DNA of 22,803 nucleotides from a virus (IMGVR_UViG_3300035670_001304:1-22803), one strand, 5' to 3'; shown: positions 159 to 19,013, counted from the first letter of the stretch. Notes: a model not told the origin generated them from the letters alone. A program made the numbers and translations.

Positions 159-1083
159 TTTGCTAATCGCCTATGCAGAGGCTAGGCGAGGCAAGACTTA
201 CAGCAGCTCTTATCTGCGTTTTAAAGAGTATGCGCTGGCCAACCTCAGGCAACTGCAGCTGCGTTTAATTGAAGGTGGCTGGCGACCAGACGCACAGCTG
301 CAGTTTGACATTATTGATCCTAAGAAGCGCACGATTGCCTGCCAAAGTTTTCGTGATCGTGTGCTGCATCATGCCTTGATCCAAGTGGTGGGGCCGATCT
401 TGGATGCGGCGATGATGCCCCAGGTGTTTGCTTGCCGGGTGGGGCTAGGTACTCATAAATGCGTGACGCGGATGCAGCAGCTGATGCGCCAAAACCCCGA
501 CGCCTGGGTGCTTCACGTTGACTTTAGTAAGTTCTTCCCCTCTATTCCTCAAGACCTGCTGCTGGCCCATCTGGGCAAGAAACTTACTTGCCGTCGCACG
601 CTGCTGTTGATTGAGCAGGTGCTATCGGTGCAGGATCAGGGCGTGCCGATCGGCGCACTCACCAGTCAAACCTTTGCCAACTACTGGGGCGGCAAGCTGG
701 ATCGCTTCATTGCGCAGCAGGGCAATGGCTGCTTCGTGCGCTACATGGATGACGCGGTGATCATCGTGTCGTCCAAGGCTGAAGGGTTGGCGCTGAAAGA
801 TCGCATCTGCACGTTCGTGGCCGACGAGATGGATCAACGCATCGGCAAGTGGAGCCTGGGCCCGGTGGAGCGCGGTGTGACGTTCTGCGGGTTCCGCATC
901 CGACGCAAGTTCAAGCTGATCAAGCGCCAGTCAATGATTAGGCAGCGCCGCAAGTTGCGACTGCTGCTGGACCACGATGATCACGAAGGGTGGCGAGCGT
1001 CGCAAATTGCTTGGATGGGCCATGTGCGCCATGCTGATGGGCAGAACGGATTGGCCCACATGGGCCTTGCATCTTCATGCTGA
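109..1083 (+). CDS. DGR-type reverse transcriptase
   Basis: RNA-directed DNA polymerase of the diversity-generating retroelement class, which copies a template repeat with adenine mutagenesis into the variable repeat of a target gene, usually a tail-fibre or receptor-binding protein. The 324-aa protein has the RT palm: catalytic Asp138 in VDFSKFFPSI, the DGR-typical GVPIGALTSQ at 178-187 followed by TFAN, the active site YMDD at 212-215, and the GVTFCGFRI segment near 256-264. As far as I remember the Bordetella phage BPP-1 Brt protein, the resemblance runs from the N-terminal 'RNL..QI..W.NLL.AY' to the C-terminal 'GH...AD..N' region. Start chosen at ATG 109; no clear Shine-Dalgarno is visible. 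The neighbouring lysis genes fit the end of a tail module. No template/variable repeat pair or Avd gene is visible, and both would lie to the left of the window. Confidence 0.9.
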   Translation: MAQKFRNLYPQIYDWNNLLIAYAEARRGKTYSSSYLRFKEYALANLRQLQLRLIEGGWRPDAQLQFDIIDPKKRTIACQSFRDRVLHHALIQVVGPILDAAMMPQVFACRVGLGTHKCVTRMQQLMRQNPDAWVLHVDFSKFFPSIPQDLLLAHLGKKLTCRRTLLLIEQVLSVQDQGVPIGALTSQTFANYWGGKLDRFIAQQGNGCFVRYMDDAVIIVSSKAEGLALKDRICTFVADEMDQRIGKWSLGPVERGVTFCGFRIRRKFKLIKRQSMIRQRRKLRLLLDHDDHEGWRASQIAWMGHVRHADGQNGLAHMGLASSC

Positions 1084-1766: not shown

Positions 1767-1782
1767 TCTGCAGCAGTGCAGA
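1767..1782. promoter_or_regulatory. TCTGCA-N4-TGCAGA palindrome, copy 2 (perfect)
   Basis: Reads TCTGCA GCAG TGCAGA, with both 6-bp arms perfectly complementary. It lies 26 bp before the preferred ATG of the metallophosphoesterase gene. Either a dimeric regulator site or part of a phage promoter would fit. Confidence 0.6.
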
Positions 1783-5925: not shown

Positions 5926-6150
5926 CTAACCCTCAACAAAGGCTTCATTCACTTCTGGAGTGGTGGGGTCATCACCTTCAAATTGCCCTTTGACGGTGCG
6001 TGCCCGTTTCTTCGTTGGGGCCGAGTCCGTTGCGGCAACAGGAACAGCTCCAGCAAGCGCTGCTTCAGCTGCCGCCACCACAGCATCCGGGACGTCACTG
6101 CCGAAATGCTGCAGACCGAGCCGGATCCGCTGGTCATTGGTGAGATACAT
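5926..6150 (-). CDS. small hypothetical phage protein, 74 aa
   Basis: Begins MYLTNDQRIRLGLQHFG, continues with an Ala/Val-rich helical stretch (VVAAAEAALAGAVPVAA), a basic patch TKKRARTVKG, and an acidic end with DDPTTPEVNEAF. The combination of a basic segment followed by a 'G.F..DDP.TP..NEA' tail is a pattern I have seen in small proteins of podovirus packaging and structural regions, but I cannot name a family. It lies between the winged-helix gene upstream and terL downstream, all on -, so the three probably share a transcript. Its AUG at 6150 follows 43 bp after the stop of the upstream gene. Confidence 0.6.
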   Translation of the reverse strand: MYLTNDQRIRLGLQHFGSDVPDAVVAAAEAALAGAVPVAATDSAPTKKRARTVKGQFEGDDPTTPEVNEAFVEG

Positions 6151-6193
6151 GGGTGCAGAGCAGTTTGTCTCAGGCTATCGAGAACTGAAAGGG

Positions 6194-6571
6194 TCAGTCT
6201 TCAACTGCTGCTTTGAACTGTGCCCAGAGGTGATTGCGGCGTTGCGGGCCACCGACGCTGAAGATAAACGGATTGACGAGGAAGTAACGCTCGCCAGAGG
6301 CTTTGTCAAAGACTCTGGCAATAACTTGCTGCTGTCTTAAGCGGGTCATGGAGGAGATGCAGGTGGAGTGGTTGATGTCGAGCTTTTCAGCCAAGGCTGC
6401 ACCGGTGACGCGCACGCGACCAGAGCGGTCCATGTGTGCGACCAGAGCTACGAGGACGCTGAGGTCCCGGAGCTGCAGATCCCTTTTGGCAACGGCGTCG
6501 AGAAGGGTTTCAAGGTCTCTGGTCTGGTGAAACATGACGAAGCGGTCCTGCTCCTCAGGGGGTAACGACAT
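6194..6571 (-). CDS. winged-helix DNA-binding protein (RepL/MarR-like)
   Basis: 125 aa. Residues about 35-100 form a clear winged helix: LSVLVALVAHMDRSGRVRV, then the helix-turn-helix TGAALAEKLDINHSTCISSM, then TRLRQQQVIARVFDKASGERYFLVNPFIF as the wing. The ending '..YFLVNPFIFSVGG...' resembles RepL-type plasmid initiators and related phage regulators, so both replication initiation and transcriptional control are possible. The start is ATG 6571, preceded on its own strand by the leader ACCAACCAACC and, further up, by the tandem CCTAGG array at 6595-6623, which could serve for autoregulation. It points away from the + strand early genes, the usual place for a lysogeny regulator. The DNA-binding fold is secure, the exact function is not. 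Confidence 0.7.
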   Translation of the reverse strand: MSLPPEEQDRFVMFHQTRDLETLLDAVAKRDLQLRDLSVLVALVAHMDRSGRVRVTGAALAEKLDINHSTCISSMTRLRQQQVIARVFDKASGERYFLVNPFIFSVGGPQRRNHLWAQFKAAVED

Positions 6572-6594
6572 GGTTGGTTGGTGTGTACGGGTTT

Positions 6595-6623
6595 CCTAGG
6601 AATCTCCTAGGAGTCCCCTATGG
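6595..6623. promoter_or_regulatory. tandem CCTAGG operator array 1 (11-bp period)
   Basis: CCTAGG occurs at 6595-6600 and 6606-6611, with the near copy CCTATGG at 6617-6623; starts are exactly 11 bp apart. Flanks extend the palindrome towards CTCCTAGGAGT. The array lies 23-51 bp before the winged-helix gene on - and upstream of the early region on +. Two more arrays with the same period exist at 10758 and 14926. Confidence 0.7.
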
Positions 6624-7319
6624 AAAGCGGCGCATAACGCAGGTATAGTTTTGTACTACCCTTGCAGCGCAACGGATTTGCCTCTCCTATGGCGAAGCAA
6701 CCTTGAGTTTAGGAGTTTTAACTCGCTTCTCGCCCAAGGCCCGGATGAAAGTCGCTCTTGACTCTCTATCTAGGTGGGCAAAAAACAAAAGCCTGAACAC
6801 AGGGCGAACTGTCCCACACCCACAGATTCTTGCCTACCCCCACGCAAGCGCCCCTGGGGCCTGTCTAAACCCGCTGGTGGTATCTCTGCACCCCTGAAGC
6901 TGTAGAGGCCTGTTCCCGGGGCTCCTGGACGCTTCTCAGCGCTGTTGCGCTTCATCCATGCAGACCTCAGACCCTCCTGCGCAGCGAAATCACTCAGATG
7001 TCCCGTTTTTGGGTCGCGTGATCTGGTGGTGTCCTCAGCGCGTGGAGCAGCCGGTTCCCCCCATAGGGGGCCCTGATCGCCCCTGGGGCACCCGCGCATC
7101 GGCTGCCGCACCCGATCGGCACCCAGGGGCCAACAACCCTCATGGGGGCTGGGGTTGCAGAGGATCAGGCATCCGCTGGAGGGGCCAGCTGCGCCCGCTG
7201 CCGCGGCCCTGAACGCCTGCCCATCGGTTGCTATGTAAAGATTTGTTACAAAGCAAGGGACGCCCACCGCCATTCCGGCGCCATTCGCCGCGATCACTGG
7301 CACAATGGCGTCAGGCACA
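6624..7319. other. long non-coding control region (possible virion-end region)
   Basis: About 700 bp between the divergent winged-helix gene and the early genes with no convincing coding frame on either strand. It holds a TATAGT-like box at 6644-6649, a degenerate TCTGCA palindrome at 6885-6900, the palindrome GCCCCTGGGGC at 6850-6860 and again at 7079-7089, a nested hairpin at 7079-7130, and a short A/T-rich patch at 7228-7252 that could be promoter DNA. In T7-like maps the genome ends, terminal repeats and host-polymerase promoters fall between the terminase and the early genes, which is this position. No terminal repeat can be proven from one contig. Confidence 0.4.
7079..7130. terminator. 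nested hairpin in the control region
   Basis: The outer arms GCCCCTGGG (7079-7087) and CCCAGGGGC (7122-7130) pair perfectly. Inside, ATCGG (7098-7102) pairs with CCGAT (7112-7116). No U-run follows, so a factor-dependent terminator, processing site or packaging structure is as likely as an intrinsic terminator. Confidence 0.45.
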
Positions 7320-7335
7320 TCTGCAGGGCTGCAGC
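7320..7335. promoter_or_regulatory. TCTGCA-N4-TGCA palindrome, copy 3
   Basis: Reads TCTGCA GGGC TGCAGC, one mismatch from a perfect palindrome, 41 bp upstream of the first early gene ATG. It sits where control of the whole early operon would be expected. Confidence 0.55.
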
Positions 7336-7376
7336 AGCTCAGCAGGAGTGCGCACCAACCAACCGCACCTAGACAC

Positions 7377-7688
7377 ATGAACACCACCACCGCGCCCGCG
7401 GCCGCTGAGGCTGTGGGCGGGATCCTGGACGCTGCGCAGCTGGCCTGGGATCGGTCCGACTGGATCGATGCCATGCAGCAGGGCTGCGAGGACACGTACG
7501 CGAGCTCAGTCATTTGGGCGAGCGATTGGGACCTGGAGCTCACCAGCGCGGACCTGCGCCAGCTGATCGAGGACCACGGGTTCACGATCACCCAGCTGGC
7601 CTACGACATCGCCAGCGCTGCAGCAGCGGGTCACCCGGTCGCTTCCGTCTGGCACGCCGGCCAGGCCCTCGTCTGGCTGGGGTACTGA
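7377..7688 (+). CDS. early protein of unknown function, 103 aa
   Basis: The start is ATG 7377, placed after the CA-rich leader ACCAACCAACC at 7354-7364; an upstream in-frame ATG at 7305 is rejected because it would run through the leader and the palindrome at 7320. The protein is acidic with a Thr/Ala-rich N-terminus, then a globular region with several Trp (WDRSDWIDAM, WASDWDLELTSADLRQLIEDHG, VWHAGQALVWLGY). No known domain is recognised. It is the first gene of the early cluster, a position that in T7-like phages often holds host-takeover or anti-restriction proteins; that role is inference. It overlaps the next ATG by one base. Confidence 0.65.
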   Translation: MNTTTAPAAAEAVGGILDAAQLAWDRSDWIDAMQQGCEDTYASSVIWASDWDLELTSADLRQLIEDHGFTITQLAYDIASAAAAGHPVASVWHAGQALVWLGY

Positions 7689-7816
7689 TGGCTGCCCTGA
7701 TGTACCTCGCCGGTTGGGTTACGAACCGGCTGCCAACTCGGCTAGCGCTGCTGATGCCTAACCCAGTGCTACGGGCTGCCTACCGGCAGCTCTGGCGGGA
7801 GCTGGCAGAGCAATGA
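7688..7816 (+). CDS. tiny early protein, 42 aa
   Basis: A short frame starting at ATG 7688, which overlaps the stop of the preceding gene (TGATG), and ending at 7816, where its stop overlaps the next ATG (ATGA). The peptide is MAALMYLAGWVTNRL followed by PTRLALLMPNPVLRAAYRQ and a charged end, so a hydrophobic N-terminus and a basic amphipathic helix. The coupled start and stop on both sides are the main support. It has no recognisable family. Confidence 0.45.
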   Translation: MAALMYLAGWVTNRLPTRLALLMPNPVLRAAYRQLWRELAEQ

Positions 7817-8004
7817 TCCGCGCCAACGTTGCAGGGAGCCTTGGGGCCGCCCTGCTGGGCCTCTGGGGCCTCTGGGCCCTGGCAGACCGTCCACAGATCC
7901 CGAAGGCCTCGCAGCCGCTCTCAGCGGCCGCAGAGGTTGCGCACCAGCCGCGGCGATGGCAGCAGCCAGACCCGCGGACCTTGGGCCGATTCCCTGGCCC
8001 TTGA
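7813..8004 (+). CDS. small early protein with one membrane segment, 63 aa
   Basis: Begins MIRANVAGSLGAALLGLWGLWALA, a single hydrophobic helix that could be a membrane anchor or an uncleaved signal, followed by a polar region rich in Pro, Gln and Arg. The start overlaps the preceding stop by four bases (ATGA). The stop TGA at 8002-8004 is also the first bases of the first stop-to-start hairpin cassette. Function unknown; small membrane proteins in early phage operons sometimes act in superinfection exclusion, but nothing here shows that. Confidence 0.5.
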   Translation: MIRANVAGSLGAALLGLWGLWALADRPQIPKASQPLSAAAEVAHQPRRWQQPDPRTLGRFPGP

Positions 8005-8075
8005 TCCCATCTCGGAGGGGCTTTGGCCCTTCCCTGCTGGGTTCACCAGCACCAACACCAACCAACCAACCAACC
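8003..8075 (+). repeat. intercistronic double-hairpin cassette, copy 1
   Basis: Runs from the stop codon of the preceding gene to the next ATG. Stem 1 is GAGGGGC (8015-8021) with GCCCTTC (8026-8032). Stem 2 is TGCTGG-GTTCA-CCAGCA (8035-8051). A leader of repeated CCAACCAACC follows up to the start codon. Copies 2 and 3 at 8920 and 9449 share the same order of parts, and both stems carry compensating base changes. Confidence 0.75.
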
Positions 8076-8468
8076 ATGACAACCAAAGACACACTGCCGC
8101 GGCCGCTGATGGGCCATTACGTGGGCCTGGCCATCGAGGCCCTGGAGCGCCACAACCTGACGCCTGCCGCCCTGCTGCGGGGGCTGCAGAACGGCACGCT
8201 GCAAATCGTCTGGAGCGGGCCGGCACTGCCGCCGCCCAGCTACTGCCGCTCTGGCGGTCAGATCGACACCGACACGATCGCCGGTGACTGGGCCTCGCGC
8301 CTTGTCAACGCTCTGGCCCGCGATGCCGGCACCTACGGCGCGGTGGGCTTTGACCTCACCGCCAGCGATTGCTGGTGGCTGATCGCCAAAGTCCGCGCCG
8401 GTGCCCTGCAGGTCGTAACGGCCGACACCCTGGCCGCTCTGGGCCGGGCCGCCCTTGTGGAGGCCTGA
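8076..8468 (+). CDS. early protein of unknown function, 130 aa
   Basis: ATG 8076 follows directly on the CA-rich leader of cassette copy 1. Longer in-frame versions would translate the hairpins and are rejected. The protein begins MTTKDTLPRPLMGHYVGLAI and has a helical stretch (EALERHNLTPAALLRGLQNG), a Pro-rich turn (ALPPPSYC), then a mixed region with ASDCWWLIAKVRAGALQVV. No known domain is recognised. Three bases separate its stop from the next ATG, so it heads a three-gene unit (8076, 8472, 8703) that ends at cassette copy 2. Confidence 0.65.
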   Translation: MTTKDTLPRPLMGHYVGLAIEALERHNLTPAALLRGLQNGTLQIVWSGPALPPPSYCRSGGQIDTDTIAGDWASRLVNALARDAGTYGAVGFDLTASDCWWLIAKVRAGALQVVTADTLAALGRAALVEA

Positions 8469-8471
8469 ACC

Positions 8472-8699
8472 ATGCAGCGCACCACCTACACCGTCTGGGC
8501 CAAGCTCTGGGGCATCAATGAACTCGAGTTCATCGACGAGTTCGAGACGCTCAAGGGCGCAGCCGCGGCCGCCCGCAGGTACCGGGAGCAATACCCGGAC
8601 GACATGCAAGGCGCGCCGGTGCAGTACCTCGTGCGCAAGGAGCCACCGCCAGAGCCCGGCATCCCATACGAGCAGCTGGCAGCTGCCGGGATGGCCTGA
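8472..8699 (+). CDS. early hypothetical protein, 75 aa
   Basis: A small protein that starts three bases after the previous stop. It reads MQRTTYTVWAKLWGINELEF, then an acidic helix FIDEFETLKGAAAAARRYRE and the pattern YPDDMQGAPVQYLVRKEPPP. The strand-helix-strand rhythm suggests a small compact alpha/beta fold, but I cannot place it in a family. Tight spacing with both neighbours supports the frame. Function unknown. Confidence 0.6.
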   Translation: MQRTTYTVWAKLWGINELEFIDEFETLKGAAAAARRYREQYPDDMQGAPVQYLVRKEPPPEPGIPYEQLAAAGMA

Positions 8700-8702
8700 C
8701 TC

Positions 8703-8921
8703 ATGCGCGACCCACTGCCCAACCCATGGCCCGGCAACCCCAACGCTTACGAGTGCCCCTGGGGTTGCAACGGCACCGGCTCGATGCCCTGGTTTGCCCA
8801 CATCGCCAACGGCGTTTGCTTCGGCTGCCACGGCAAAGGCTGGATCCTTGGCCGCGGCCACCGGCAACCCACCAAACGCCGCCAATGGCAAAAGGTGGGC
8901 GGCCGCATCGTTCCAGCTTGA
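8703..8921 (+). CDS. small zinc-finger-like protein (DnaJ-type cysteine pairs)
   Basis: 72 aa with two cysteine pairs: C18-P-W-G-C22 followed by NGTG, and C39-F-G-C42 followed by HGKGW. The 'C..C.G.G' spacing resembles one zinc module of the DnaJ cysteine-rich region; such modules in small phage proteins usually bind zinc and sometimes nucleic acid or a protein partner. The tail is basic (RQPTKRRQWQK). It starts three bases after the previous stop, and its own stop TGA (8919-8921) opens cassette copy 2. Zinc binding is a fair inference; the cellular target is unknown. Confidence 0.6.
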   Translation: MRDPLPNPWPGNPNAYECPWGCNGTGSMPWFAHIANGVCFGCHGKGWILGRGHRQPTKRRQWQKVGGRIVPA

Positions 8922-8991
8922 CGGCATCACGGAGGCCCTGCGGGGCCTCTCTGCTGCCCTCAGCAGCACCAACACCAACCAGCCACCAACC
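8920..8991 (+). repeat. intercistronic double-hairpin cassette, copy 2
   Basis: Stem 1 is GAGGCCC-TGCG-GGGCCTC (8932-8949), a perfect 7-bp stem with a tetraloop. Stem 2 is CTGCTG-CCCT-CAGCAG (8951-8966); compared with copies 1 and 3 both arms have changed together, keeping the pairing. The leader with ACCAACC-type repeats leads to ATG 8992. Confidence 0.75.
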
Positions 8992-9450
8992 ATGTCTAAC
9001 GCCATCTACAACCACACAGCAGGCCGCCTGCACACCTGCCTCAACACCGACGGGGTGTGCATGTTCACCGGTAAGACCGTTGAGCAGATGCAGCAAGAGT
9101 CAGCCGAACAGCTCGAGGTGATGCCCTTTACCCAGGCCCTCGAGCTGACCGGCGCCGCAGACCGCGCCCGCTACTGCACCGGGCCCGAGCGGATCACCCA
9201 GGAGCGCTACGAGGAAATGCTCAACGTGCTCCCGCCCGAGAACTGGCAGCGCGGGGTCGGTTACAGCTGCTTCCGGCTGTCCGAGCGACTCGCCGGCGCC
9301 ATTGCCAGCTTTTTTGTTCGCATCGGCGACAGCTTCTACCAGATCAACGAAGACGAGGACACAGACCCCGCTGTTCTGTTCCGCGCCTGCATGGACCACG
9401 ATGCCCCGCCAGAGCCGGCCGCGGCCATCTGCCGCCGTGCTGGCTGCTGA
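8992..9450 (+). CDS. early protein of unknown function, 152 aa
   Basis: ATG 8992 directly follows the leader of cassette copy 2. The N-terminus has spaced cysteines (HTCLNTDGVCMFTG). The middle has ITQERYEEMLNVLPPENWQR, and then FRLSERLAGAIASFFVRIGD, SFYQINEDEDTDPAVLF. The 'ERYEEML..LPP..W' and 'SERL.G.I...F.RIGD..Y..NE' segments look like a conserved fold found in small plasmid and phage proteins of unknown function; I cannot name it with certainty. Its stop TGA (9448-9450) opens cassette copy 3, so it is a single-gene cassette between two hairpin elements. Confidence 0.65.
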   Translation: MSNAIYNHTAGRLHTCLNTDGVCMFTGKTVEQMQQESAEQLEVMPFTQALELTGAADRARYCTGPERITQERYEEMLNVLPPENWQRGVGYSCFRLSERLAGAIASFFVRIGDSFYQINEDEDTDPAVLFRACMDHDAPPEPAAAICRRAGC

Positions 9451-9519
9451 TCCCATCACTGAGGCCCTGCGGGGCCTCTCTGCTGGGTTCACCAGCACCA
9501 CACCAACCAACCCAAACCC
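9449..9519 (+). repeat. intercistronic double-hairpin cassette, copy 3
   Basis: Stem 1 is GAGGCCC-TGCG-GGGCCTC (9461-9478), identical to copy 2. Stem 2 is TGCTGG-GTTCA-CCAGCA (9481-9497), identical to copy 1. The leader contains ACACCAACCAACCC and ends at ATG 9520. This copy therefore combines features of the other two. Confidence 0.75.
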
Positions 9520-9795
9520 ATGAACACACCCAAGCAACCGCCAGACCCGGCCCTTGTGGCCCTGGTGCTGGCCCTGCTGGCCCTCGAGCTGCTCTGGCAG
9601 CTGGTGCGGCCGGTGCTGACTCGCAGCGCCGCCCTGGTGCTGGCCCTGCTGCAGGTGCGCCCGGTGCGCACTGGTGCAGCCGACCTGACCGAAGAGCTGG
9701 CCGCCGATTGCACACCCGCGCCGCGGCCGGTAGCCAAAAGCAAGCGACGCCGCACACGGCGCACCCGTCACACCGCAACGGAGGCCTCATGCTGA
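9520..9795 (+). CDS. small early protein with membrane helix and basic tail, 91 aa
   Basis: After MNTPKQPPDP comes a strongly hydrophobic helix (ALVALVLALLALELLWQLV), a second Leu/Val-rich stretch (SAALVLALLQV), then a polar region and a strongly basic tail (KSKRRRTRRTRH). The topology suggests a membrane-anchored protein with a cytoplasmic basic end. The start follows the leader of cassette copy 3. It overlaps the next gene by seven bases. No family recognised; low-complexity composition makes function hard to judge. Confidence 0.5.
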   Translation: MNTPKQPPDPALVALVLALLALELLWQLVRPVLTRSAALVLALLQVRPVRTGAADLTEELAADCTPAPRPVAKSKRRRTRRTRHTATEASC

Positions 9796-10001
9796 ATCTT
9801 GACATCACCACCGCTGAAGCGGAGCTACTGGTGCAGCTGCTGCGGCCACGGACTGAGCTGCTGACTGAGCTGTTTGAGGTGCAGGTGCAGCATTGCCCTG
9901 CAGGTGATGACAGCTGGGCTCTGACCCGCGATGCCCTGCAGGTGGCCCACGGTGCCCTGATCAAGCTGCGCAATGCTCAAGTGCAGGGGGCGCAGTCATG
10001 A
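9789..10001 (+). CDS. early hypothetical protein, 70 aa
   Basis: ATG 9789 lies inside the end of the preceding gene (the sequence ATGCTGA contains both the start and the upstream stop). The peptide is acidic and Leu-rich: MLNLDITTAEAELLVQLLRP, RTELLTELFEVQVQHC, then a helix ALTRDALQVAHGALIKLRNAQ. It is probably all-alpha and could form a helical bundle or coiled coil. It overlaps the next gene by four bases (ATGA), so these short genes are likely translated in series. Function unknown. Confidence 0.6.
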   Translation: MLNLDITTAEAELLVQLLRPRTELLTELFEVQVQHCPAGDDSWALTRDALQVAHGALIKLRNAQVQGAQS

Positions 10002-10285
10002 AAGAGATCGGAGCGCTGATCTGGGCCCTGCTGCAGGTGGTGGGGTTCTTCCTGTCAATCCTCCTGGTGCAGCTGCCCTTTTACGTGGTGCGCCACGTGA
10101 TGCGGTGGTATCGGCTGCCACGGTGGAAGCGCGACGCCATCAACACTGAAAGCCGGCTGGCCACCGAATACGGCTGGCAACAGGTCGAAGCCTTAATCAG
10201 GGCAGAGCTGGCCATGCACAACTTGCAAGACACGCCAGAAAACCGGGTCAAACTCAACTCAACCCGAATCAGGAGGCGCAAATGA
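9998..10285 (+). CDS. small membrane protein, 95 aa
   Basis: One long hydrophobic segment at residues about 4-32 (IGALIWALLQVVGFFLSILLVQ, PFYVV), followed by a basic juxtamembrane region (RHVMRWYRLPRWKRD) and a charged helical cytoplasmic part ending in STRIRRRK. By the positive-inside rule the C-terminal part would face the cytoplasm. It overlaps its neighbours by four bases on both sides. The family is unknown; an early inner-membrane protein of a temperate phage could act in exclusion or host membrane modification, but this is only context. Confidence 0.6.
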   Translation: MKEIGALIWALLQVVGFFLSILLVQLPFYVVRHVMRWYRLPRWKRDAINTESRLATEYGWQQVEALIRAELAMHNLQDTPENRVKLNSTRIRRRK

Positions 10286-10644
10286 CCTCTCCTGCCAAGG
10301 TTGCTGGATTGATGGCAGGGCTTCGGCAGGCGGCCAAGACCGCCAGGGCCCAGGCCATGCACCCAGCGGTGCCAGAGGTGCTGCTGTGGATTGCAGCTGG
10401 TGTTGATCACCGGCAAGACATAACGAAGGTCAGCGGATTGTCCGATCGAGAAGTGCGCCGCATCTGCCACACCCTCAGCGGCAAGGGCTATAGGCAAGGA
10501 GGTCGCATAGTGGATTCAGCTTTTGATCTGGTGGCAGTGCGCCGACACCCGCACCGCCGCGGCGATCAGCTTGTCTTGACGGCCGCCGGCCAGTCTTTGA
10601 TCTCTAGTACATTTGAACCAACGGAGGATACGCCATGCGCCTAG
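10282..10644 (+). CDS. winged-helix regulator-like protein, 120 aa
   Basis: The N-terminal basic region (KVAGLMAGLRQAAKTARAQA) is followed by a helix-turn-helix-like unit: VPEVLLWIAAGVDHRQDITK, VSGLSDREVRRICHTLSGKG, and a wing with FDLVAVRRHPHRRGDQLVLT. It ends in an 'LTAAGQSLI' helix. This order (HTH, wing, 'L..G..L') is that of MarR-type winged-helix proteins, which are usually dimeric transcription regulators. It overlaps the membrane-protein gene by four bases. Together with the protein at 10784 it may recognise the palindromic arrays described in this window, but which protein binds which site cannot be told from sequence. Confidence 0.55.
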   Translation: MTSPAKVAGLMAGLRQAAKTARAQAMHPAVPEVLLWIAAGVDHRQDITKVSGLSDREVRRICHTLSGKGYRQGGRIVDSAFDLVAVRRHPHRRGDQLVLTAAGQSLISSTFEPTEDTPCA

Positions 10645-10925
10645 CGCTGCTGGCTTCGATTGAGCTGCCATTTCCTAAAGCGTGGCGCCACTATTCCCTG
10701 TGGGCAGAGCAGGTGGGAAACCGCCATCGCCTTGTTCTGCAGGGGTGTCAGAGTTCTCCTAGGAGTTTCCTAGGAGTGCAACCATGGATCTGGATCAACT
10801 GGCGAGGGCTCTTAATGCTTTTGCCGCAATGGACCCGACCAGCTTTCCGCTGCATCACGCCCAACTCTTCATCGAGGTGGCGCGCAAGGAGCAATGCACC
10901 TTTGCAGAGCTGCAAGAGGCCATGA
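10635..10925 (+). CDS. uncertain gene with good RBS, possibly decayed 3' end
   Basis: A clear Shine-Dalgarno GGAGG (10623-10627) lies seven bases before ATG 10635, better than most starts here. The first 39 or so residues (MRLALLASIELPFPKAWRHY, then SLWAEQVGNRHRLVLQGC) look like a plausible protein. After that the frame passes through the CCTAGG array and then runs out of frame across the next gene for more than 140 bp, where the amino acids look like a shadow reading. The original gene may have been cut short by a frameshift or by the arrival of the downstream control region. Treat as a possible remnant. Confidence 0.3.
   Translation: MRLALLASIELPFPKAWRHYSLWAEQVGNRHRLVLQGCQSSPRSFLGVQPWIWINWRGLLMLLPQWTRPAFRCITPNSSSRWRARSNAPLQSCKRP
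10756..10777. promoter_or_regulatory. tandem CCTAGG operator array 2 (11-bp period)
   Basis: CCTAGG at 10758-10763 and 10769-10774, 11 bp apart, each followed by AGT. The array ends seven bases before the ATG of the winged-helix gene at 10784, so a bound protein would block its translation start region or promoter. A degenerate TCTGCA palindrome (10736-10751) lies directly upstream. Confidence 0.7.
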
Positions 10926-11101
10926 ACCTCACCAACGGATCCGTGTCCCGGACCGTTGCTGCGCTGAGCGTGGTCAACCGCCACGGTGAGCCTGGATTTC
11001 GACTCGTCGAGGTCTTCAAAGACCCCGAGCAGCCCAGGCGATTCCTGGTGCGGCTCTCGCCCCGCGGCAAAGCCCTGCTCAAGCAGCTCAAAGACTCCTG
11101 A
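10784..11101 (+). CDS. MarR-like winged-helix transcription regulator
   Basis: 105 aa with a standard winged-helix layout: FPLHHAQLFIEVARKEQ as the first helix, CTFAELQEAMNLTNGSVSRT as the helix-turn-helix with the recognition helix NGSVSRTVAAL, then the wing GFRLVEVFKDPEQPRRFLVR and the 'LSPRGKALLKQL' C-terminal helix. MarR-type proteins act as dimers on palindromes. Its start lies seven bases after a tandem CCTAGG array, which makes autorepression plausible. It is the last gene before the integrase leader, as expected for a regulator of the lysis-lysogeny choice. The fold is well supported, the regulon is inferred. Confidence 0.7.
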   Translation: MDLDQLARALNAFAAMDPTSFPLHHAQLFIEVARKEQCTFAELQEAMNLTNGSVSRTVAALSVVNRHGEPGFRLVEVFKDPEQPRRFLVRLSPRGKALLKQLKDS

Positions 11102-11156
11102 GCAGGCCGCTGTCTGCGGCTTGCCAAAACAAGCCAACACCAACCAACCAACCACC
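11102..11156 (+). promoter_or_regulatory. integrase leader: hairpin plus CA-rich stretch
   Basis: The small hairpin GCCGC-TGTCT-GCGGC (11107-11121) is followed by the stretch ACACCAACCAACCAACC before ATG 11157. It resembles the stop-to-start cassettes at 8003, 8920 and 9449 in layout, though the stems differ. No Shine-Dalgarno is visible. Confidence 0.5.
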
Positions 11157-12155
11157 ATGACTGGATCTGTTCGCAAGGCTGCCGATGGCAGCTGGATTGC
11201 TGATGTCTCTGTGGCCGGAGTGCGCAAGACCGGCAAATGCAAAACCCGCGCCGAGGCCCTGGCCCGCAAGCGTGAGTTCCTGGAGCTCCTGCTGCAGCGT
11301 GAGGCCAAGCAGGTGCAGCGCTCCACCTACACCCTGGCCGAAGCCCGCGAGCTGTCGCTGCGCGTGCGCTGGAGCGGTCTCGCCTACCAGCGCACCGCTG
11401 CGATCTACAGCCAGGAGGCCGTGACCTATTTCGGCCCTGGCTTTCCCTGCAGCGAGTTCACCGCCACCCTGGTGGATGAATGGCGCCAGGCCCTGACGGC
11501 CAAGGGCAACAGGCCCAGCACCGTCAACAAGAAGGTGGCCGCCATCCGGGCCATGCTCAGCGACGCCCACCTGCACGGGCACCTGGAAGACGTGCCGCGG
11601 ATGCCACGGCAGCTGCGGATGCAGAACACCAAGGACCGGGTGTTTAGTCCCGAGGAGGTCGCTGGCTTTTGCAGGGTGTTTCAGGAGCTGGGCGAGCCCG
11701 CCGCGGCCGATCTGTTGGTGTTTCTGCTCGAGACTGCCTGCCGCTGGGGCGAGGCGGAGCGCTTGCAGGGCAAGGACGTGGACCTGGAGAAGGCCCGCGT
11801 GACCTTCTGGGCTACCAAGAACGGCAAGCCCAGGTCCGTGCCCCTCACCCGACGGGCTGTCGATGCCCTGAAGGACCACCTTCCGGCCGTTCGGACCCAC
11901 CGCGTCTGGCCCTACAAGTACGACCGCTTTGAGCACCTGTTTGATCGTGCCAAAGGCTGCCTCGGATTGGCTGGTGATCGCGCTCTCACCATTCACACCA
12001 CGCGTCACACCTGCGCCAGCAAGTTGGCCAGCCGGGGTATTCCCTTGCACCAGCTGATGGCGTTTGGCGGCTGGACTTCGCTGGCCTCAGTTCAGCGGTA
12101 TTTGCATCTGCACACCGACGCCCTGGCGGCCTGCGTTGACGCCCTGGAGGGCTGA
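11157..12155 (+). CDS. int: tyrosine-type site-specific integrase
   Basis: 332 aa; catalyses recombination between attP and a bacterial attachment site. ATG 11157 follows the CA-rich leader; an in-frame start at 10986 is rejected because it overlaps the regulator gene. The N-terminus (GSVRKAADGSWIADVSVAGV and onwards) is an arm-binding-type domain, then a SAM-like core-binding domain (about 60-150). The catalytic domain has R196 (ETACRWGE), the KNGKPRSVPL beta-hairpin, H280-x-x-R283 (HTTRH), W306 (FGGW) and nucleophile Y315 (RYLHL). Its gene ends about 140 bp before the intact tRNA-Thr and about 220 bp before the tRNA-Tyr half that I take as attP, the classical int-attP arrangement. Confidence 0.95.
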   Translation: MTGSVRKAADGSWIADVSVAGVRKTGKCKTRAEALARKREFLELLLQREAKQVQRSTYTLAEARELSLRVRWSGLAYQRTAAIYSQEAVTYFGPGFPCSEFTATLVDEWRQALTAKGNRPSTVNKKVAAIRAMLSDAHLHGHLEDVPRMPRQLRMQNTKDRVFSPEEVAGFCRVFQELGEPAAADLLVFLLETACRWGEAERLQGKDVDLEKARVTFWATKNGKPRSVPLTRRAVDALKDHLPAVRTHRVWPYKYDRFEHLFDRAKGCLGLAGDRALTIHTTRHTCASKLASRGIPLHQLMAFGGWTSLASVQRYLHLHTDALAACVDALEG

Positions 12156-12210
12156 GCCCTCATTTACATCGAAGAAGGTTCCAGCGGACAGCGTCCACCA
12201 AAGCCGTTTC

Positions 12211-12249
12211 TCTGCCGATTGTCTGCCGCAGTCTGCGGGCATCGGCAGA
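12211..12249. repeat. nested hairpin and TCTGC direct repeats after int
   Basis: The outer arms TCTGCCGAT (12211-12219) and ATCGGCAGA (12241-12249) pair perfectly, and inside CCGCA-GTC-TGCGG (12226-12238) pairs again. The same stretch contains direct repeats of TCTGC(C/G)G at 12211, 12222 and 12232, about one helical turn apart. It could terminate int transcription or be an integrase arm-binding region. No U-run follows on +. Confidence 0.5.
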
Positions 12250-12293
12250 CCCCTTAAAAATATAAACATATAAACATTGAACCCTTTTTTTGA

Positions 12294-12365
<72 letters not shown>

Positions 12366-12375
12366 ATGTGGAAGG

Positions 12376-12427
12376 TGGGCCGGGTTGGATTTGAACCAAC
12401 GTAGGCAGAGCCAGCGGATTTACAGTC
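12376..12427 (-). other. attP core: 3' half of tRNA-Tyr (GTA)
   Basis: On - this reads from GACTGTAAATCCGC through the variable arm, a perfect T-arm (GTTGG-TTCAAAT-CCAAC) and the 3' acceptor strand CCGGCCC plus discriminator A. The anticodon GTA and the 3' anticodon strand are present. The 5' anticodon strand should be GCGGA but reads GGTGA, and nothing upstream matches the D-arm or 5' acceptor. A tRNA 3' half starting at the anticodon loop, next to an integrase gene, is the classical phage attachment core. After integration the host 5' half would rejoin this 3' half. Confidence 0.8.
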
Positions 12428-12438
12428 ACCTGAAAACA

Positions 12439-12454
12439 TCTGCAGCCCTGCAGA
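12439..12454. promoter_or_regulatory. TCTGCA-N4-TGCAGA palindrome, copy 4 (perfect)
   Basis: Reads TCTGCA GCCC TGCAGA, both arms perfect, between the attP-like site and the RNA polymerase gene. Two half-matching copies follow at 12494 (TCTGCAGGGGTGAG) and 12535 (TCTGCAGCCCTT). Regulation of the polymerase gene, or of recombination at attP, would fit. Confidence 0.6.
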
Positions 12455-12545
12455 GCTATCGCAAAAACTGTCTGCGCCAAGGGTTTGGCCAGCTCTGCAG
12501 GGGTGAGGTGGAATTGGTGCTGTAAGCAGCGATCTCTGCAGCCCT

Positions 12546-14930
12546 TTGACACGGACTTTCCTGTCCACCGGCACCTTGGCCGACCCCGCTGCAGCCGACC
12601 CGGCCGCCATCGAGGAGCAAGATTGCGCCTCTTCTCAATCAAAGGCCAGGCTGCAATCGCTGGGCCGTGAATCAGTCAGCAGCTACGGGCGCGCTTTATT
12701 CATTGAGCACGGCGATCGGGTGGCCAAGGCGCTTGACGCCCTGCTGACCCGGTTTGTGCTGGACCCGCTGATCGCCGGGCCCCACTACTGCGCCCTGCCG
12801 CTGCTGCTGCACTTCTCAACCAAAGGAGCCGTGCCCATTGCGGCTGTGTCTTTGAAGGCGGTCTTGGATCAGCTGTCTCGCAGGCACACTCACCGCCGGC
12901 TTGCTGGTGCCATCGGCCGGGCCATTGAAGATGAAGTCAAGGCTGGGCGGATTGCCGCTCGAGACAGAGACGTGCTGCGGCTGCTCAAACGCCACCAGGG
13001 CAAGGCAGCAGTGGTCAGCAGCGAGACGCTGCAATCGCTGCGCGTGGGCCACACCAGCTGGACGACAACCGATCGCTTTGAAGTCGGCGCCCTGCTGCTG
13101 CAGCTGGTCATTGAGGAAACCAAGCTGCTGCGGCTGGTTCGGCAGTCAGTCCGCGGGCGCCAGACCTTGATGGTGGAGCCAACTGAGCTTGCAACCGAAA
13201 CGATTCGCAGGGCCCCGGAAGATCAGGCGCCACTGCCGCAGGGTCCAAAGCTCGAACCTCCCAGGGACTGGCTCGGGCCCCAGGGCCTGGTGAGCAGGCG
13301 CGACGGGCTACCCCTCGACTACCTGCATGGCGCAGACCTCAAGGTGCCGCTGCAAGTGGTTAATCACCTGCAGGCGCAAGCCCTGATGGTCGATCCGTGG
13401 ATGGCCCAGCAGCAGTCAGAGGCATGGAGCGCCAACTTGCGAGGCCTTTTCTCTGTCACCAGGGACCCGCAGCAGGCGCCCGCAAGACCAGAAGCCGATG
13501 AGGACCGCGCAGCATGGCGGCAGTGGCGGCGGGAAGCCCGAGAGGCCTGGGCGGAGGAGCGCAAGAACAAAGGCCCGCGGCAGCGCATCCAGGAATCACT
13601 GAACCAAGCCGTGGCGGTTGCGGGCGAACCGATCTGGTTTGGGTACGTGTTCGATTTTCGCGGCAGGGCTTACACGTCCAACCGACGTGTCACCCATCAA
13701 GGCCCTGATTTTGAGAAAGGGCTGGTCAACTTCCGCAGTGGGCTGCCCTGTGACGAGACCGCTGCCGAGTGGATCCTGAAGGCCGCGGCGTCGCATTGGG
13801 GGCTGAGCCGCTCGAGCTGGGCAGAACGTCTGCAGTGGGGCCGCGACAACATCGAACGGCTGCTGGCTATTGCCGAGGCGCCGCTGGACCGGCTCGAGCT
13901 GTGGCGTGATGCCAAGGAGCCATGGCAGTTGCTGCAAATGGCCAGGGCCTGGTCGCAATGGTTGAACGACCCATCGACGCCAATCACGGCGCCGATCCGC
14001 TTTGACCAAACGACGAGCGGCTTGGGGATCGCTGCGGCGCTGGTGCGGGACAAGGCGCTGGCACGCGAGACAAACCTGGTCGGCACCACCCGCCACGACA
14101 TCTACGTCGGGGTTGCCGCAAAGGCCGTCAGGGCGCTGCAGCTGGACCTGGAATCCGGCACCCCGGCTCAGCAGCGCTATGCCGCTGTGTGGCTTGAGCT
14201 GGGCGTTGATCGGGCCCTGGTCAAAGGGCCGGTGATGTCCTCTGTGTATGGCGCCCAGCTGCGCTCCATCTTTGACGGGCTGGCAGATCACCTGATCGAG
14301 CATGTGGAGCTGCAGCAAGCGGCGGACTACCAGCGGCAGATCGTGCTGCCTGCCCGCTACATGGCGCAGAAGCTGCAGCAGGTGCTCGCGCCCGAGATTG
14401 CCCCACTGCTCGAGCTCAAGCGCTGGCTGGAGGGCATCAGTGCTGTTGTTGTCAAACGCCAGCGGGGCATCCGTTGGACATCGCCGATGGGCCTGCCGGT
14501 GTTGCTGGCCGGCAAGCAGCCAGCCAACCCGCCTGCCCCGACGCTGCTGCATGGCAGCCGCGGCTGGCGAACAGAGGACAGCAGCAGGCGCCGCCATGAA
14601 CTCAGCGCCAGGGCGACAAGCCGCGGCATCACGGCCAACCTCATTCACTCGTTTGACGCTGCGCTGCTGCACGCCCTGATCTGCAGGGCTGAAGATGTCG
14701 GGGCCGAAGTGCTCCCTAACCACGACTGCTTTGCGGCTGTGCCAGCCCTGGCGACCTGGCTGCACAGAACAGTTCACTCAGAGCTGCGCACGCTGTACCT
14801 GCCGGAGTGGCTTGACGAGATCTCGGCTGAGATCGCCTGCAACGCAGGGTTGAAGCAGCTGCCGTCGCCGCCCATGGTGGGCACGCTGGTGCCTGGCGAG
14901 ATCGGTCAGAACTCCTATTGCTTTTCCTAG
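12546..14930 (+). CDS. T7-type single-subunit RNA polymerase
   Basis: 794 aa, DNA-directed RNA polymerase that transcribes the middle and late phage genes. From the TTG start at 12546, the motifs are DFRGR at 370-374 (T7 DWRGR), catalytic D487 in FDQTTSGLG (T7 D537), K560 and Y568 in VKGPVMSSVYG with the same 8-residue spacing as T7 K631/Y639, and H726-D727 in NHDCFAAVPA (T7 H811/D812). The end SYCFS corresponds to the aromatic C-terminal foot. It is shorter than T7 (883 aa), mainly in the N-terminal domain. The start is uncertain: the first Met after TTG is far inside. Its stop codon lies within the first CCTAGG of array 3. Confidence 0.95.
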   Translation: MTRTFLSTGTLADPAAADPAAIEEQDCASSQSKARLQSLGRESVSSYGRALFIEHGDRVAKALDALLTRFVLDPLIAGPHYCALPLLLHFSTKGAVPIAAVSLKAVLDQLSRRHTHRRLAGAIGRAIEDEVKAGRIAARDRDVLRLLKRHQGKAAVVSSETLQSLRVGHTSWTTTDRFEVGALLLQLVIEETKLLRLVRQSVRGRQTLMVEPTELATETIRRAPEDQAPLPQGPKLEPPRDWLGPQGLVSRRDGLPLDYLHGADLKVPLQVVNHLQAQALMVDPWMAQQQSEAWSANLRGLFSVTRDPQQAPARPEADEDRAAWRQWRREAREAWAEERKNKGPRQRIQESLNQAVAVAGEPIWFGYVFDFRGRAYTSNRRVTHQGPDFEKGLVNFRSGLPCDETAAEWILKAAASHWGLSRSSWAERLQWGRDNIERLLAIAEAPLDRLELWRDAKEPWQLLQMARAWSQWLNDPSTPITAPIRFDQTTSGLGIAAALVRDKALARETNLVGTTRHDIYVGVAAKAVRALQLDLESGTPAQQRYAAVWLELGVDRALVKGPVMSSVYGAQLRSIFDGLADHLIEHVELQQAADYQRQIVLPARYMAQKLQQVLAPEIAPLLELKRWLEGISAVVVKRQRGIRWTSPMGLPVLLAGKQPANPPAPTLLHGSRGWRTEDSSRRRHELSARATSRGITANLIHSFDAALLHALICRAEDVGAEVLPNHDCFAAVPALATWLHRTVHSELRTLYLPEWLDEISAEIACNAGLKQLPSPPMVGTLVPGEIGQNSYCFS

Positions 14931-14953
14931 GACTCTCCTAGGAGTTGCCTAGG
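14926..14953. promoter_or_regulatory. tandem CCTAGG operator array 3 (11-bp period)
   Basis: Three perfect CCTAGG copies at 14926, 14937 and 14948, exactly 11 bp apart. The first contains the TAG stop of the RNA polymerase gene. The array precedes the SSB gene by about 50 bp and lies upstream of the TCTGCA palindrome at 14984, the same order of motifs being reversed at the 10784 gene. Confidence 0.75.
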
Positions 14954-14983
14954 AGAGGTCAAGCCGCTACGGTGCGGCAGACA

Positions 14984-14999
14984 TCTGCACCCATGCAGC
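14984..14999. promoter_or_regulatory. TCTGCA-N4-TGCA palindrome, copy 5
   Basis: Reads TCTGCA CCCA TGCAGC and ends four bases before the SSB ATG at 15004, in the place of a ribosome-binding site. No Shine-Dalgarno is present. Confidence 0.55.
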
Positions 15000-15003
15000 A
15001 CAA

Positions 15004-15657
15004 ATGCCGCGCACAATGCTGACCACCCCCGTAGGCGATGCCTACTGGGCCAAATGCCTAGAGCCCGAAGAAGATCGCTTTGATCCAGAGAAGCCACGCA
15101 GCTGGTCTGTCAGCTGGTGCGGCGATCAAAACGACAAGCCAACCATCTCCTTGATGCAGCTGATCGAGGAGGAGTTTGCTCGCATCCATGGCGAGGGAGC
15201 CAAGCCAAGCAAAAACGCTTGGCCTTTCCGCGAGCAAACCGACAAGGACGGCAAGGCCACCGGCCTGCTCGAGTTCCGCTTCAAGAAAAACGAGACCACC
15301 AAAAAGGGCATGACCCTGATGGCTCCGGCCGTCTACGACAGCCACAAGAACCCTTGGCCGGCCAACACGCTGATTGGCAACGGCAGCAAGGTGAAGGTCG
15401 CGTTCTCCGTCTGGGGTTGGGAGGACAAGTTCGGCAAGAAGGGCGTGAGCCTGAGCTTTGAGGCCCTTCAGGTGCTTGACCTCGTGCCTTACGAGCGCAA
15501 GGACCCAGGCGATGCCTTTGGCGTTGAAAACGGCTACGTGGCAGAGACCCCGGCCGATGCCTTCACCAACGGCAAAGGCGATGAGGCCCTGACGCCCAGC
15601 CAGCGACTTGCTCAGCGCGCGGCCGCACCGGCCGACGACGAGGAGATCCCGTTCTGA
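15004..15657 (+). CDS. T7 gp2.5-like single-stranded DNA-binding protein
   Basis: 217 aa, binds single-stranded DNA during replication and recombination. The body begins PRTMLTTPVGDAYWAKCLEP and contains the central strand region with NGSKVKVAFSVWGWEDKFGK and GVSLSFEALQVLDLVPYERK, which matches the OB-fold core of phage gp2.5 proteins. The tail is acidic and ends DDEEIPF, like the acidic, aromatic-tipped C-terminus of T7 gp2.5 that contacts replication partners. It is the first gene of a tightly coupled replication operon: its TGA overlaps the next ATG. Both palindrome families lie in its leader. Confidence 0.85.
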   Translation: MPRTMLTTPVGDAYWAKCLEPEEDRFDPEKPRSWSVSWCGDQNDKPTISLMQLIEEEFARIHGEGAKPSKNAWPFREQTDKDGKATGLLEFRFKKNETTKKGMTLMAPAVYDSHKNPWPANTLIGNGSKVKVAFSVWGWEDKFGKKGVSLSFEALQVLDLVPYERKDPGDAFGVENGYVAETPADAFTNGKGDEALTPSQRLAQRAAAPADDEEIPF

Positions 15658-16016
15658 TGAAGACCGCCGACTTCGAGCTCAAAGTCCCGCTCATGTCCAA
15701 GGCTCGCCCCCGTTCCCCCAAAGGTGGTGGGCGGCCGTACATGCCCAAGGCCTACATGGACTGGAAGGCCAACGTCAGGGCAATTCTTGGCGAGTGGTGG
15801 ACTGTCCCACCTCTTGAGCAGGTCAACGCCTTGGTGCTGGTGTTCCGGGGCCCGGCCCGCGGCGACTTGGACAACCTTGCCGGGGCAGTGCTCGACAGCG
15901 GCAACGGCTTGATCTGGGCCGACGACCGGGTGGGTGTGATGCCCACCCTCGCCTTGCGCTGGACGAAGGCAGCCAAGGCAGAGCAATCCATCTACATGAA
16001 GGTGATCTGGGAATGA
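15657..16016 (+). CDS. RusA-like Holliday junction resolvase
   Basis: 119 aa endonuclease that resolves branched DNA before packaging. The signature GDLDNLAGAVLDSGNG is followed by IWADDRVG; acidic residues D70, D72 and D89/D90 sit where the E. coli RusA catalytic residues D70, D72 and D91 are. The N-terminal KARPRSPKGGGRPY is typical of the family's basic opening. In T7 this position after the SSB is held by the unrelated endonuclease I (gp3), so RusA replaces it here. The start overlaps the SSB stop by one base, and its end overlaps the next gene by four bases. Confidence 0.88.
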   Translation: MKTADFELKVPLMSKARPRSPKGGGRPYMPKAYMDWKANVRAILGEWWTVPPLEQVNALVLVFRGPARGDLDNLAGAVLDSGNGLIWADDRVGVMPTLALRWTKAAKAEQSIYMKVIWE

Positions 16017-16585
16017 ACTGCCCCAGCTGCAAACATCAACACTCTCGCGTCATTGACACCGACCGGGTGTCAGACGGCATCAGGCGTTACCGGGTCTGCC
16101 GCAACTGCGGCAATCGGTTCGCGACTCTCGAGCGGATCGAGGACTGGGATCCAGTCATGGGCGGCTATGGGCCCGTGGCAGAAGAGCCCGTGCCGGTCTT
16201 GGCGGCTGTCCCTGACCCGCTGCCAGCCAGGCCTCGGGTCGCAGCACGGCACGTTGTCGATCTGGCCGACGACCACTTATTGGCTGTCTGCCAAGAGGCA
16301 CAGCCGTTGTTAGTGCAGTGGTGGAACGAAAGCCGCCGCTCAAAGCACAAAGGCAACGCCACCTGGACTGAAGCCGCGTGGCAGGCATCGGTCAGCCGTG
16401 TTGCTGCACTGCCCCAGGCGCAGCAAATGCTGCTGGCTCAGGCGGGAGTGGAGCACGGCTGGCAGGCCCTTAAGCCCGAATACATCAAAGACGAGCTGGC
16501 CAGGCCAACAGCCGCTGGCCGCCCCATGCCCAAGGACCCGGCGATGCTCGCCGCTCTGGAGCAATGGCCAAGTCAAACCGCCTGA
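16013..16585 (+). CDS. NrdR-type zinc-ribbon protein with unknown C-terminal part
   Basis: 190 aa. The first 45 residues are a close match to the NrdR zinc ribbon: C3-P-S-C6, the DTDRVSDGIRRYRVC stretch, C29-R-N-C32-G, then RFATLERIE. Cellular NrdR continues with an ATP-cone and represses ribonucleotide reductase genes. That domain is absent here; instead a Pro/Val-rich linker leads to about 120 residues of helical sequence with WWNESRRSKHKGNATWTEAA and EHGWQALKPEYIKDEL. It sits between the resolvase and another unknown replication-region gene, overlapping the latter by 22 bp. It may bind DNA or tune host nucleotide metabolism, but this is inference. Confidence 0.7.
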   Translation: MNCPSCKHQHSRVIDTDRVSDGIRRYRVCRNCGNRFATLERIEDWDPVMGGYGPVAEEPVPVLAAVPDPLPARPRVAARHVVDLADDHLLAVCQEAQPLLVQWWNESRRSKHKGNATWTEAAWQASVSRVAALPQAQQMLLAQAGVEHGWQALKPEYIKDELARPTAAGRPMPKDPAMLAALEQWPSQTA

Positions 16586-18813: not shown

Positions 18814-18829
18814 TCTGCATGTCTGCAGT
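18814..18829. promoter_or_regulatory. TCTGCA-N4-TGCA palindrome, copy 6
   Basis: Reads TCTGCA TGTC TGCAGT, just after the exonuclease stop and at the boundary between the replication and structural genes. It overlaps the preferred ATG (18819) of the next gene. A switch of transcription at this boundary would fit. Confidence 0.5.
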
Positions 18830-19013
18830 GTTGCAGCCGATTGTCACCGATGAGCTGATCCAAAAGCTCAAGAGCGTCTTCCCCGACGCTCCAGGCAGGT
18901 CGATGTCTCATCGGGACATTGACCACTGGATTGGGCAGCAGGAAGTCATCGGCTATCTCGACAAGCTGCTGGAAGAACAGCAGTCCGACCCGCTCAACCT
19001 GGAGGCCCTCTGA
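18819..19013 (+). CDS. small hypothetical protein, 64 aa
   Basis: From ATG 18819 the peptide is MSAVLQPIVTDELIQKLKSV, FPDAPGRSMSHRDIDHWIGQ, QEVIGYLDKLLEEQQSDPLN and a short end. An alternative ATG at 18786 adds 11 residues and would overlap the exonuclease gene. It is acidic and helical with a pattern that recalls small phage proteins of the region just before the portal gene. It overlaps the next ATG by one base (TGATG). No family recognised. It is the first gene of the structural segment. Confidence 0.55.
   Translation: MSAVLQPIVTDELIQKLKSVFPDAPGRSMSHRDIDHWIGQQEVIGYLDKLLEEQQSDPLNLEAL

What the first reader, a model, noticed from the sequence alone, without database searches (positions are those of the whole stretch)
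6595..14953. CCTAGG arrays with exact 11-bp period at three control regions
CCTAGG repeats at 6595/6606 (plus CCTATGG at 6617), 10758/10769, and 14926/14937/14948, always 11 bp apart, with an extended consensus CTCCTAGGAGT. They precede two winged-helix genes and the SSB-led replication operon, and the last array contains the stop codon of the RNA polymerase gene. One palindrome per helical turn suggests cooperative binding along one face of the DNA by a regulator, probably one of the winged-helix proteins. The only other CCTAGG sites I saw are single ones inside terL.
Basis: partly seen in the sequence, partly recalled or inferred. Interest (0 to 1): 0.85.

Follow-up and report, generated by a model that had tools for sequence, protein, structure and literature searches.

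The report
Operator arrays of a phage repressor
A virus of freshwater cyanobacteria carries short CCTAGG palindromes, repeated every 11 bases in front of three key genes, that are most likely the docking sites of its own MarR-type repressor and so probably the switch between killing its host and lying dormant in it.

Summary
CCTAGG at 11-bp period occurs at three control regions: four pairs against none in 300 shuffles. One further single site, at 1729, was missed.

Relatives settle much of the meaning. In 21 distinct phages with the same regulator type, CTAG-centred sites (consensus GACTCCTAGGAGTC, 85 of 89 CCTAGG) recur upstream of the MarR-like gene (HTH3), at the RNAP-SSB junction and usually upstream of HTH1. 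They are not seen at capsid or tail genes.

Its recognition helix is the most conserved stretch of the protein and changes together with the operator: N[GS][ST]VSR with CCTAGG; NASVSR mostly with non-CCTAGG CTAG sites at 12-bp period; NASASR with none upstream of HTH3. Only about two independent changes support this.

The exact 11-bp phasing belongs to the window's own clade; relatives use 7 to 23 bp. The strict one-face model is therefore only partly supported.

HTH3 sits beside the integrase. A cyanobacterial contig carries an integrated relative at tRNA-Tyr, and attP lies between integrase and RNAP.

Best reading: operators of an autoregulated MarR-type lysogeny repressor. Binding and repression remain untested.

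The parts
6593..6623 (.). Operator array 1: CCTAGG at 6595 and 6606, degenerate CCTATGG at 6617; between HTH1 (leftward) and the rightward early region
6621..6649 (+). Only sigma-70-like promoter found in 6150-7420 (TGGAAA-17-TATAGT); its first hexamer overlaps the third, degenerate unit of array 1. Weak consensus match, may be chance
   Evidence: 1 found, 0.3 expected
10756..10777 (.). Operator array 2: CCTAGG at 10758 and 10769, directly upstream of HTH3; site centres 23 and 12 bp before its ATG
14924..14956 (.). Operator array 3: CCTAGG at 14926, 14937, 14948, between RNA polymerase (stop codon inside unit 1) and the SSB operon
10784..11101 (+). HTH3: 105-aa MarR-like winged-helix protein, the proposed repressor that reads the arrays
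   Evidence: phrog_9665 E 6e-22; MarR fold; helix conservation and co-variation with operator
6194..6571 (-). HTH1: small winged-helix protein, downstream of array 1 but with a variable recognition helix
10282..10644 (+). HTH2: distant HTH3-like protein, no array in front, variable recognition helix
11157..12155 (+). Tyrosine integrase, directly downstream of HTH3
12294..12427 (-). Probable attP: tRNA-Thr(GGT) at 12294-12365 and the 3' half of tRNA-Tyr at about 12366-12427, collinear with a prophage-host junction in a cyanobacterial contig (L224)
12546..14930 (+). T7-like single-subunit RNA polymerase (start codon uncertain)
15004..15657 (+). gp2.5-like SSB, first gene of the replication operon behind array 3 (then RusA-like 15657-16016 and NrdR-ribbon protein 16013-16585)
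14985..14998 (+). CTGCA-N4-TGCAG element between array 3 and SSB, a recurrent second element, possibly the phage-RNAP promoter or a leader hairpin

Best explanation
The arrays are the operators of HTH3, the phage's own MarR-type repressor, in a temperate T7-like cyanophage. Each CCTAGG is the core of a roughly 14-bp dyad-symmetric site (GACTCCTAGGAGTC). HTH3 binds, probably as a dimer per site, and neighbouring sites let several dimers bind together. Bound HTH3 (1) limits its own operon HTH3-integrase, (2) closes the control region between HTH1 and the rightward early genes, and (3) blocks transcription into the SSB replication operon behind the RNA polymerase gene. Together this would hold the phage as a prophage. 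Integration at attP, which lies between integrase and RNA polymerase, would also part the polymerase gene from the transcription coming through HTH3-integrase. Shown here: sites, positions, conservation, co-variation with the HTH3 recognition helix, MarR fold, and integrase/attP with one integrated copy. Inferred: binding, dimer per site, cooperativity, repression, and the lysogeny role.
For: Regulon: in whole records of relatives, sites with 8 or more of 10 matches to CTCCTAGGAG lie almost only at the HTH1, HTH3 and RNAP/SSB regions, on a background of CTAG depletion (three- to eightfold in the freshwater relatives, less in the marine ones). All 21 distinct N[GS][ST]VSR phages have CTAG in the 45 bp before HTH3, most with the site centre exactly 23 bp before the ATG. 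Composition is mirror-symmetric to about +-7 bp. Reader: the HTH3 recognition helix is tied with the best of 96 ten-residue windows (79% against 60% overall), HTH1's ranks 105 of 116 (32% against 46%) and HTH2's 79 of 111. Co-variation: 31 of 32 HTH3 with N[GS][ST]V have CCTAGG upstream, 0 of 17 others; flanks 85/89 against 0/21 CCTAGG. MarR fold. HTH3 lies next to the integrase, and L224 shows a relative's INT-HTH3-array joined to host DNA at tRNA-Tyr/tRNA-Thr. A MarR-like lysogeny repressor had already been proposed for temperate T7-like phages (PMC10134795).
Against: The helix/operator co-variation rests on about two independent changes on the HTH3 tree, too few for significance. One NASVSR phage (L201) lacks CTAG and another (L180) has a single site. 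The HTH1 region has no array in the NASVSR clade. No array lies upstream of the RNA polymerase itself, where the LUZ100 model puts MarR sites. No good sigma-70 promoter was found at arrays 2 and 3, so what is repressed there is inferred. HTH3 lacks the C-terminal part of typical MarR proteins, and its N-terminal helix is modelled with low confidence.
Confidence: 0.72

Rival explanations
1. HTH3 does bind the arrays, but as an early regulator of the lytic cycle (activator, or timer that shuts off early genes and hands over to the phage polymerase), not as a lysogeny repressor.
For: A role in redirecting transcription to the phage is cited for the MarR-like protein of P-SSP7, and MarR is highly expressed early in pelagiphage HTVC022P infection (PMC12753301). 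No promoter position is known that would decide between activation and repression.
Against: HTH3 lies directly upstream of the integrase in the relatives where both were read, and an integrated copy keeps HTH3, integrase and the array together at the prophage end. Sites overlapping the HTH3 start region look like autorepression.
Confidence: 0.15
2. The arrays work as RNA: tandem palindromes pair with one another in the transcript, forming hairpins that mask the ribosome-binding site of HTH3 or attenuate transcription.
For: In the window all three arrays fold better than shuffled sequence (z -2.9 to -3.8), and in the HTH3 leader the hairpin would hold the GGAG before the ATG.
Against: Most relatives have a single site before HTH3, and spacings range from 7 to 23 bp, so the hairpin is not kept while the palindrome is. 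Operator bases change with the HTH3 helix.
Confidence: 0.05
3. The arrays are promoters of the phage T7-like RNA polymerase.
For: One array lies before SSB, where LUZ100 has tandem phage promoters (PMC10134795).
Against: No such sites lie at portal, capsid or tail genes in near-complete relatives. A different element, CTGCA-N4-TGCAG, has that genome-wide distribution.
Confidence: 0.02
4. HTH1, HTH2 or a host protein reads the arrays.
For: HTH1 and HTH2 are winged-helix proteins of the same phages, and HTH1 lies behind array 1.
Against: Their recognition helices vary freely while the operator is constant. A host protein would not explain the co-variation with HTH3.
Confidence: 0.06

Closest known systems
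MarR-integrase lysogeny cassette of temperate T7-like phages (LUZ100, PMC10134795; proposal by Boeckman et al. 2022, cited there)
   Same: MarR-like gene directly upstream of a tyrosine integrase and of the T7-like RNA polymerase; sequence homology to HTH3; proposed control of lysis and lysogeny
   Different: There the proposed MarR sites flank the promoter in front of the RNA polymerase. Here the sites lie before HTH1, HTH3 and SSB, none before the polymerase. The recognition helix differs (ISQASCSRNV) and LUZ100 has no CCTAGG array in the regions read.
gp0.7 MarR-like proteins of marine cyanopodoviruses (P-SSP7, S-CBP3) and the homologue in pelagiphage HTVC019P
   Same: Homologous protein, similar gene order
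   Different: Recognition helices differ (SSASGSRNT, TTASASRNT, SQSSVSRNA) and no CCTAGG array lies upstream
Trp repressor operators of E. coli (own knowledge)
   Same: Tandem palindromes with a CTAG core, one to three copies per regulated promoter, autoregulation, an operator that suits tandem dimer binding
   Different: TrpR is an unrelated protein family and its sites are 8 bp apart; resemblance in working only
Lambda OR/OL operators (own knowledge)
   Same: Several neighbouring operators at a few control regions of one phage, read by an autoregulated repressor
   Different: CI is not a MarR protein; spacing and site differ; no second repressor (Cro) is assigned here

Membership tests
MarR family regulators | MarR-type winged-helix fold | tested here: met
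   AlphaFold2 model pLDDT 84.7; nearly all top matches are MarR proteins, VIA Z about 12 to 2eth, 5h3r, 3voe
MarR family regulators | Pfam MarR/MarR_2 score above the curated cut-off | tested here: not met
   MarR_2 20.4 bits against 27, MarR 17.7 against 24.6: a divergent relative by sequence, MarR-like rather than a curated Pfam member
MarR family regulators | Dimer through N- and C-terminal helices | not testable with these tools
   Only a monomer was modelled; the protein is 105 aa against about 140, so the last dimer helix is short or missing
phrog_9665 transcriptional regulator of phages | Profile match over the full length | tested here: met
   E 6.3e-22, residues 4-104
Temperate T7-like lysogeny module | MarR-like gene, integrase, att site and T7-like RNA polymerase in this order, able to integrate | tested here: met
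   Order in window and relatives; junction of an integrated relative at tRNA-Tyr. Stable lysogeny not tested
Temperate T7-like lysogeny module | MarR sites flanking the promoter directly upstream of the RNA polymerase (LUZ100 hypothesis) | tested here: not met
   No CCTAGG between 12156 and 12545
Phage T7-like promoters | Copies upstream of late structural genes | tested here: not met
   CCTAGG operators are absent there in near-complete relatives
Trp repressor | Trp_repressor protein family | tested here: not met
   No Pfam match of HTH1-3 to it at E 0.1
Ribbon-helix-helix repressors (MetJ/Arc type) | An RHH protein encoded nearby | tested here: inconclusive
   None among the ten further small proteins scanned (nine early ORFs and 5926-6150), Pfam only

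The most novel reading that the evidence does not exclude
A MarR-type immunity system peculiar to this cyanophage lineage with two locks: HTH3 closes three operator arrays including the replication operon, and integration between integrase and RNA polymerase disconnects the polymerase from its upstream transcription. A residue-to-base code in the first turn of the HTH3 recognition helix would define separate immunity groups (CCTAGG, other CTAG flanks, and a third unknown operator).
Probability: 0.35. Interest if true: 0.75.

Novelty: new variant of a known kind. Interest (0 to 1): 0.6.

Why it matters
T7-like phages were long held to be strictly lytic. A MarR-like lysogeny repressor had been proposed for the temperate ones, but no repressor-operator pair is defined in the papers I could read. 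Here the operator sequence, its target regions and the protein that most likely reads it come out of comparison alone, with a specificity change visible in the recognition helix. That makes lysogeny control in widespread freshwater and marine cyanophages directly testable with one protein and three short DNAs, and lets immunity groups be predicted from sequence.

Tried and rejected
Phage-RNAP promoter: rejected, no copies at late genes. RNA hairpins: the window arrays fold well, but the structure is not kept in relatives. Ribbon-helix-helix reader: no such protein among the small proteins scanned, inconclusive. A blind scan of viral contigs for TCCTAGGN4TCCTAGG gave 102 stretches, apart from the known relatives probably mostly chance, not followed. 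The operator of the NASASR clade was sought: CCTCGTATG recurs before HTH3 in part of the clade but is not matched at SSB, so it is unresolved. The sign test for helix/operator co-variation cannot reach significance. L203 looks like a contig with sequencing frameshifts and was set aside. Sigma-70 scans at arrays 2 and 3 found nothing. No fetched paper describes the operator. Boeckman et al. 2022 is not in the library, so its proposed MarR sites were not compared.

Full report
What the window is. The window is a whole IMG/VR virus record of 22,803 bases. It encodes a T7-like RNA polymerase, a gp2.5-like SSB, a tyrosine integrase and a terminase. Its nearest named relative is Synechococcus phage S-SRP02 (46% identity over the polymerase), followed by uncultured Mediterranean phages of group G9. 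It is a fragment of a temperate T7-like cyanophage.

Observation. Four CCTAGG pairs lie at exactly 11 bp; none appeared in 300 dinucleotide shuffles, and no other palindromic hexamer behaves so. One further single site at 1729 was missed.

Conservation. In relatives from 97% down to about 45% polymerase identity the same sites recur between polymerase and SSB and before HTH3, usually also before HTH1. In the near-complete relatives CTAG is depleted, three- to eightfold in the freshwater ones and less in the marine ones, and good sites lie almost only at these three regions. All 21 distinct phages of the main class have CTAG in the 45 bp before HTH3, most with the centre exactly 23 bp before the ATG. 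The consensus is GACTCCTAGGAGTC. Co-variation between the two arms within a site is weak (p 0.007 over all sites, 0.02 over distinct ones, at one position).

Spacing. The 11-bp period is fixed in the window's clade. Relatives use 7, 9, 11, 12, 13, 14, 16, 17, 22 and 23 bp. At the SSB junction the outer sites often stay 22 to 24 bp apart, with or without a middle one. Two turns may therefore matter there, but a strict one-face array does not hold in general.

Which protein reads the sites. I compared the recognition helices of all three winged-helix proteins in 16 phages that share the operator. HTH3's helix is the most conserved stretch of that protein (79% against 60% overall); HTH1's (32% against 46%) and HTH2's (38% against 44%) are among the less conserved parts. 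Across 49 distinct HTH3 proteins, 31 of 32 with N[GS][ST]VSR have CCTAGG upstream and 0 of 17 others do. The NASVSR clade has CTAG sites with other flanks, three before HTH3 at 12-bp period. The NASASR clade has no CTAG before HTH3; S31C1 keeps one at its SSB junction. On the tree these are only about two changes, so this is strong coincidence rather than a statistical proof.

The protein. HTH3 is modelled as a MarR winged helix (pLDDT 84.7; VIA Z about 12 to MarR structures), shorter than typical members and below the Pfam cut-offs, and is a clear member of phrog_9665.

Lysogeny setting. HTH3 is followed by the integrase. Between integrase and polymerase lie tRNA-Thr and the 3' half of tRNA-Tyr. 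In cyanobacterial contig L224 a relative's array, HTH3 and integrase are joined to host genes (among them aroQ- and miaE-like ORFs, my reading of the translations) at an intact tRNA-Tyr/tRNA-Thr pair; similarity to the window starts in the tRNA-Tyr anticodon region. Integration would thus separate HTH3-integrase from the polymerase. That this silences the polymerase is inference. That genome gave no polymerase match, so the far end of the prophage was not seen.

Mechanism. Most likely HTH3 binds these sites and represses its own operon, the HTH1/early region and the SSB operon. Binding, direction of regulation and cooperativity are not shown. A lytic-cycle timing role remains possible: such a role is cited for the P-SSP7 homologue.

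What is known. The LUZ100 paper proposes MarR-based lysogeny control in temperate T7-like phages, with sites flanking the polymerase promoter, as a hypothesis. A similar hypothesis exists for Helicobacter prophages. LUZ100, P-SSP7, HTVC019P and S-CBP3 have other helices and no CCTAGG arrays in the regions read. The operator described here was not found in the library.

Noticed in passing
window 1768-1781, 7321-7334, 12440-12453, 14985-14998, 18815-18836: Palindrome CTGCA-N4-TGCAG, six copies against 0.15 expected; in relatives it lies outside recognised genes before RNAP, SSB, MCP, tail and other transcription-unit starts. Candidate phage-RNAP promoter element, leader hairpin or operator of a second regulator.
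   Followed up: partly
window 109-1083: Reverse transcriptase (RVT_1, E 3.5e-14) with a YMDD motif near the left end; possibly a diversity-generating retroelement.
   Followed up: no
L170, L173, L177, L181, L183, L184, L186, L187: A clade with HTH3 helix NASVSR carries three CTAG sites at 12-bp period before HTH3 and, where read, four before SSB, and none in the region read before HTH1 where that gene was found.
   Followed up: partly
L192-L199, upstream of HTH3: NASASR-type HTH3 has no CTAG; in most of these loci CCTCGTATG recurs about 45 bp before the gene, perhaps a changed operator.
   Followed up: partly
window 12294-12427: Phage-borne tRNA-Thr plus 3' half of tRNA-Tyr, collinear with a host tRNA pair at a prophage junction; attP lies between integrase and RNA polymerase.
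   Followed up: yes
upstream of HTH1 in relatives (e.g. L015, L150, L170, L189): A conserved ACTGGGT/ACTGGGC element lies upstream of HTH1, where CTAG sites are present some tens of bases further from the gene than these; function unknown.
   Followed up: no
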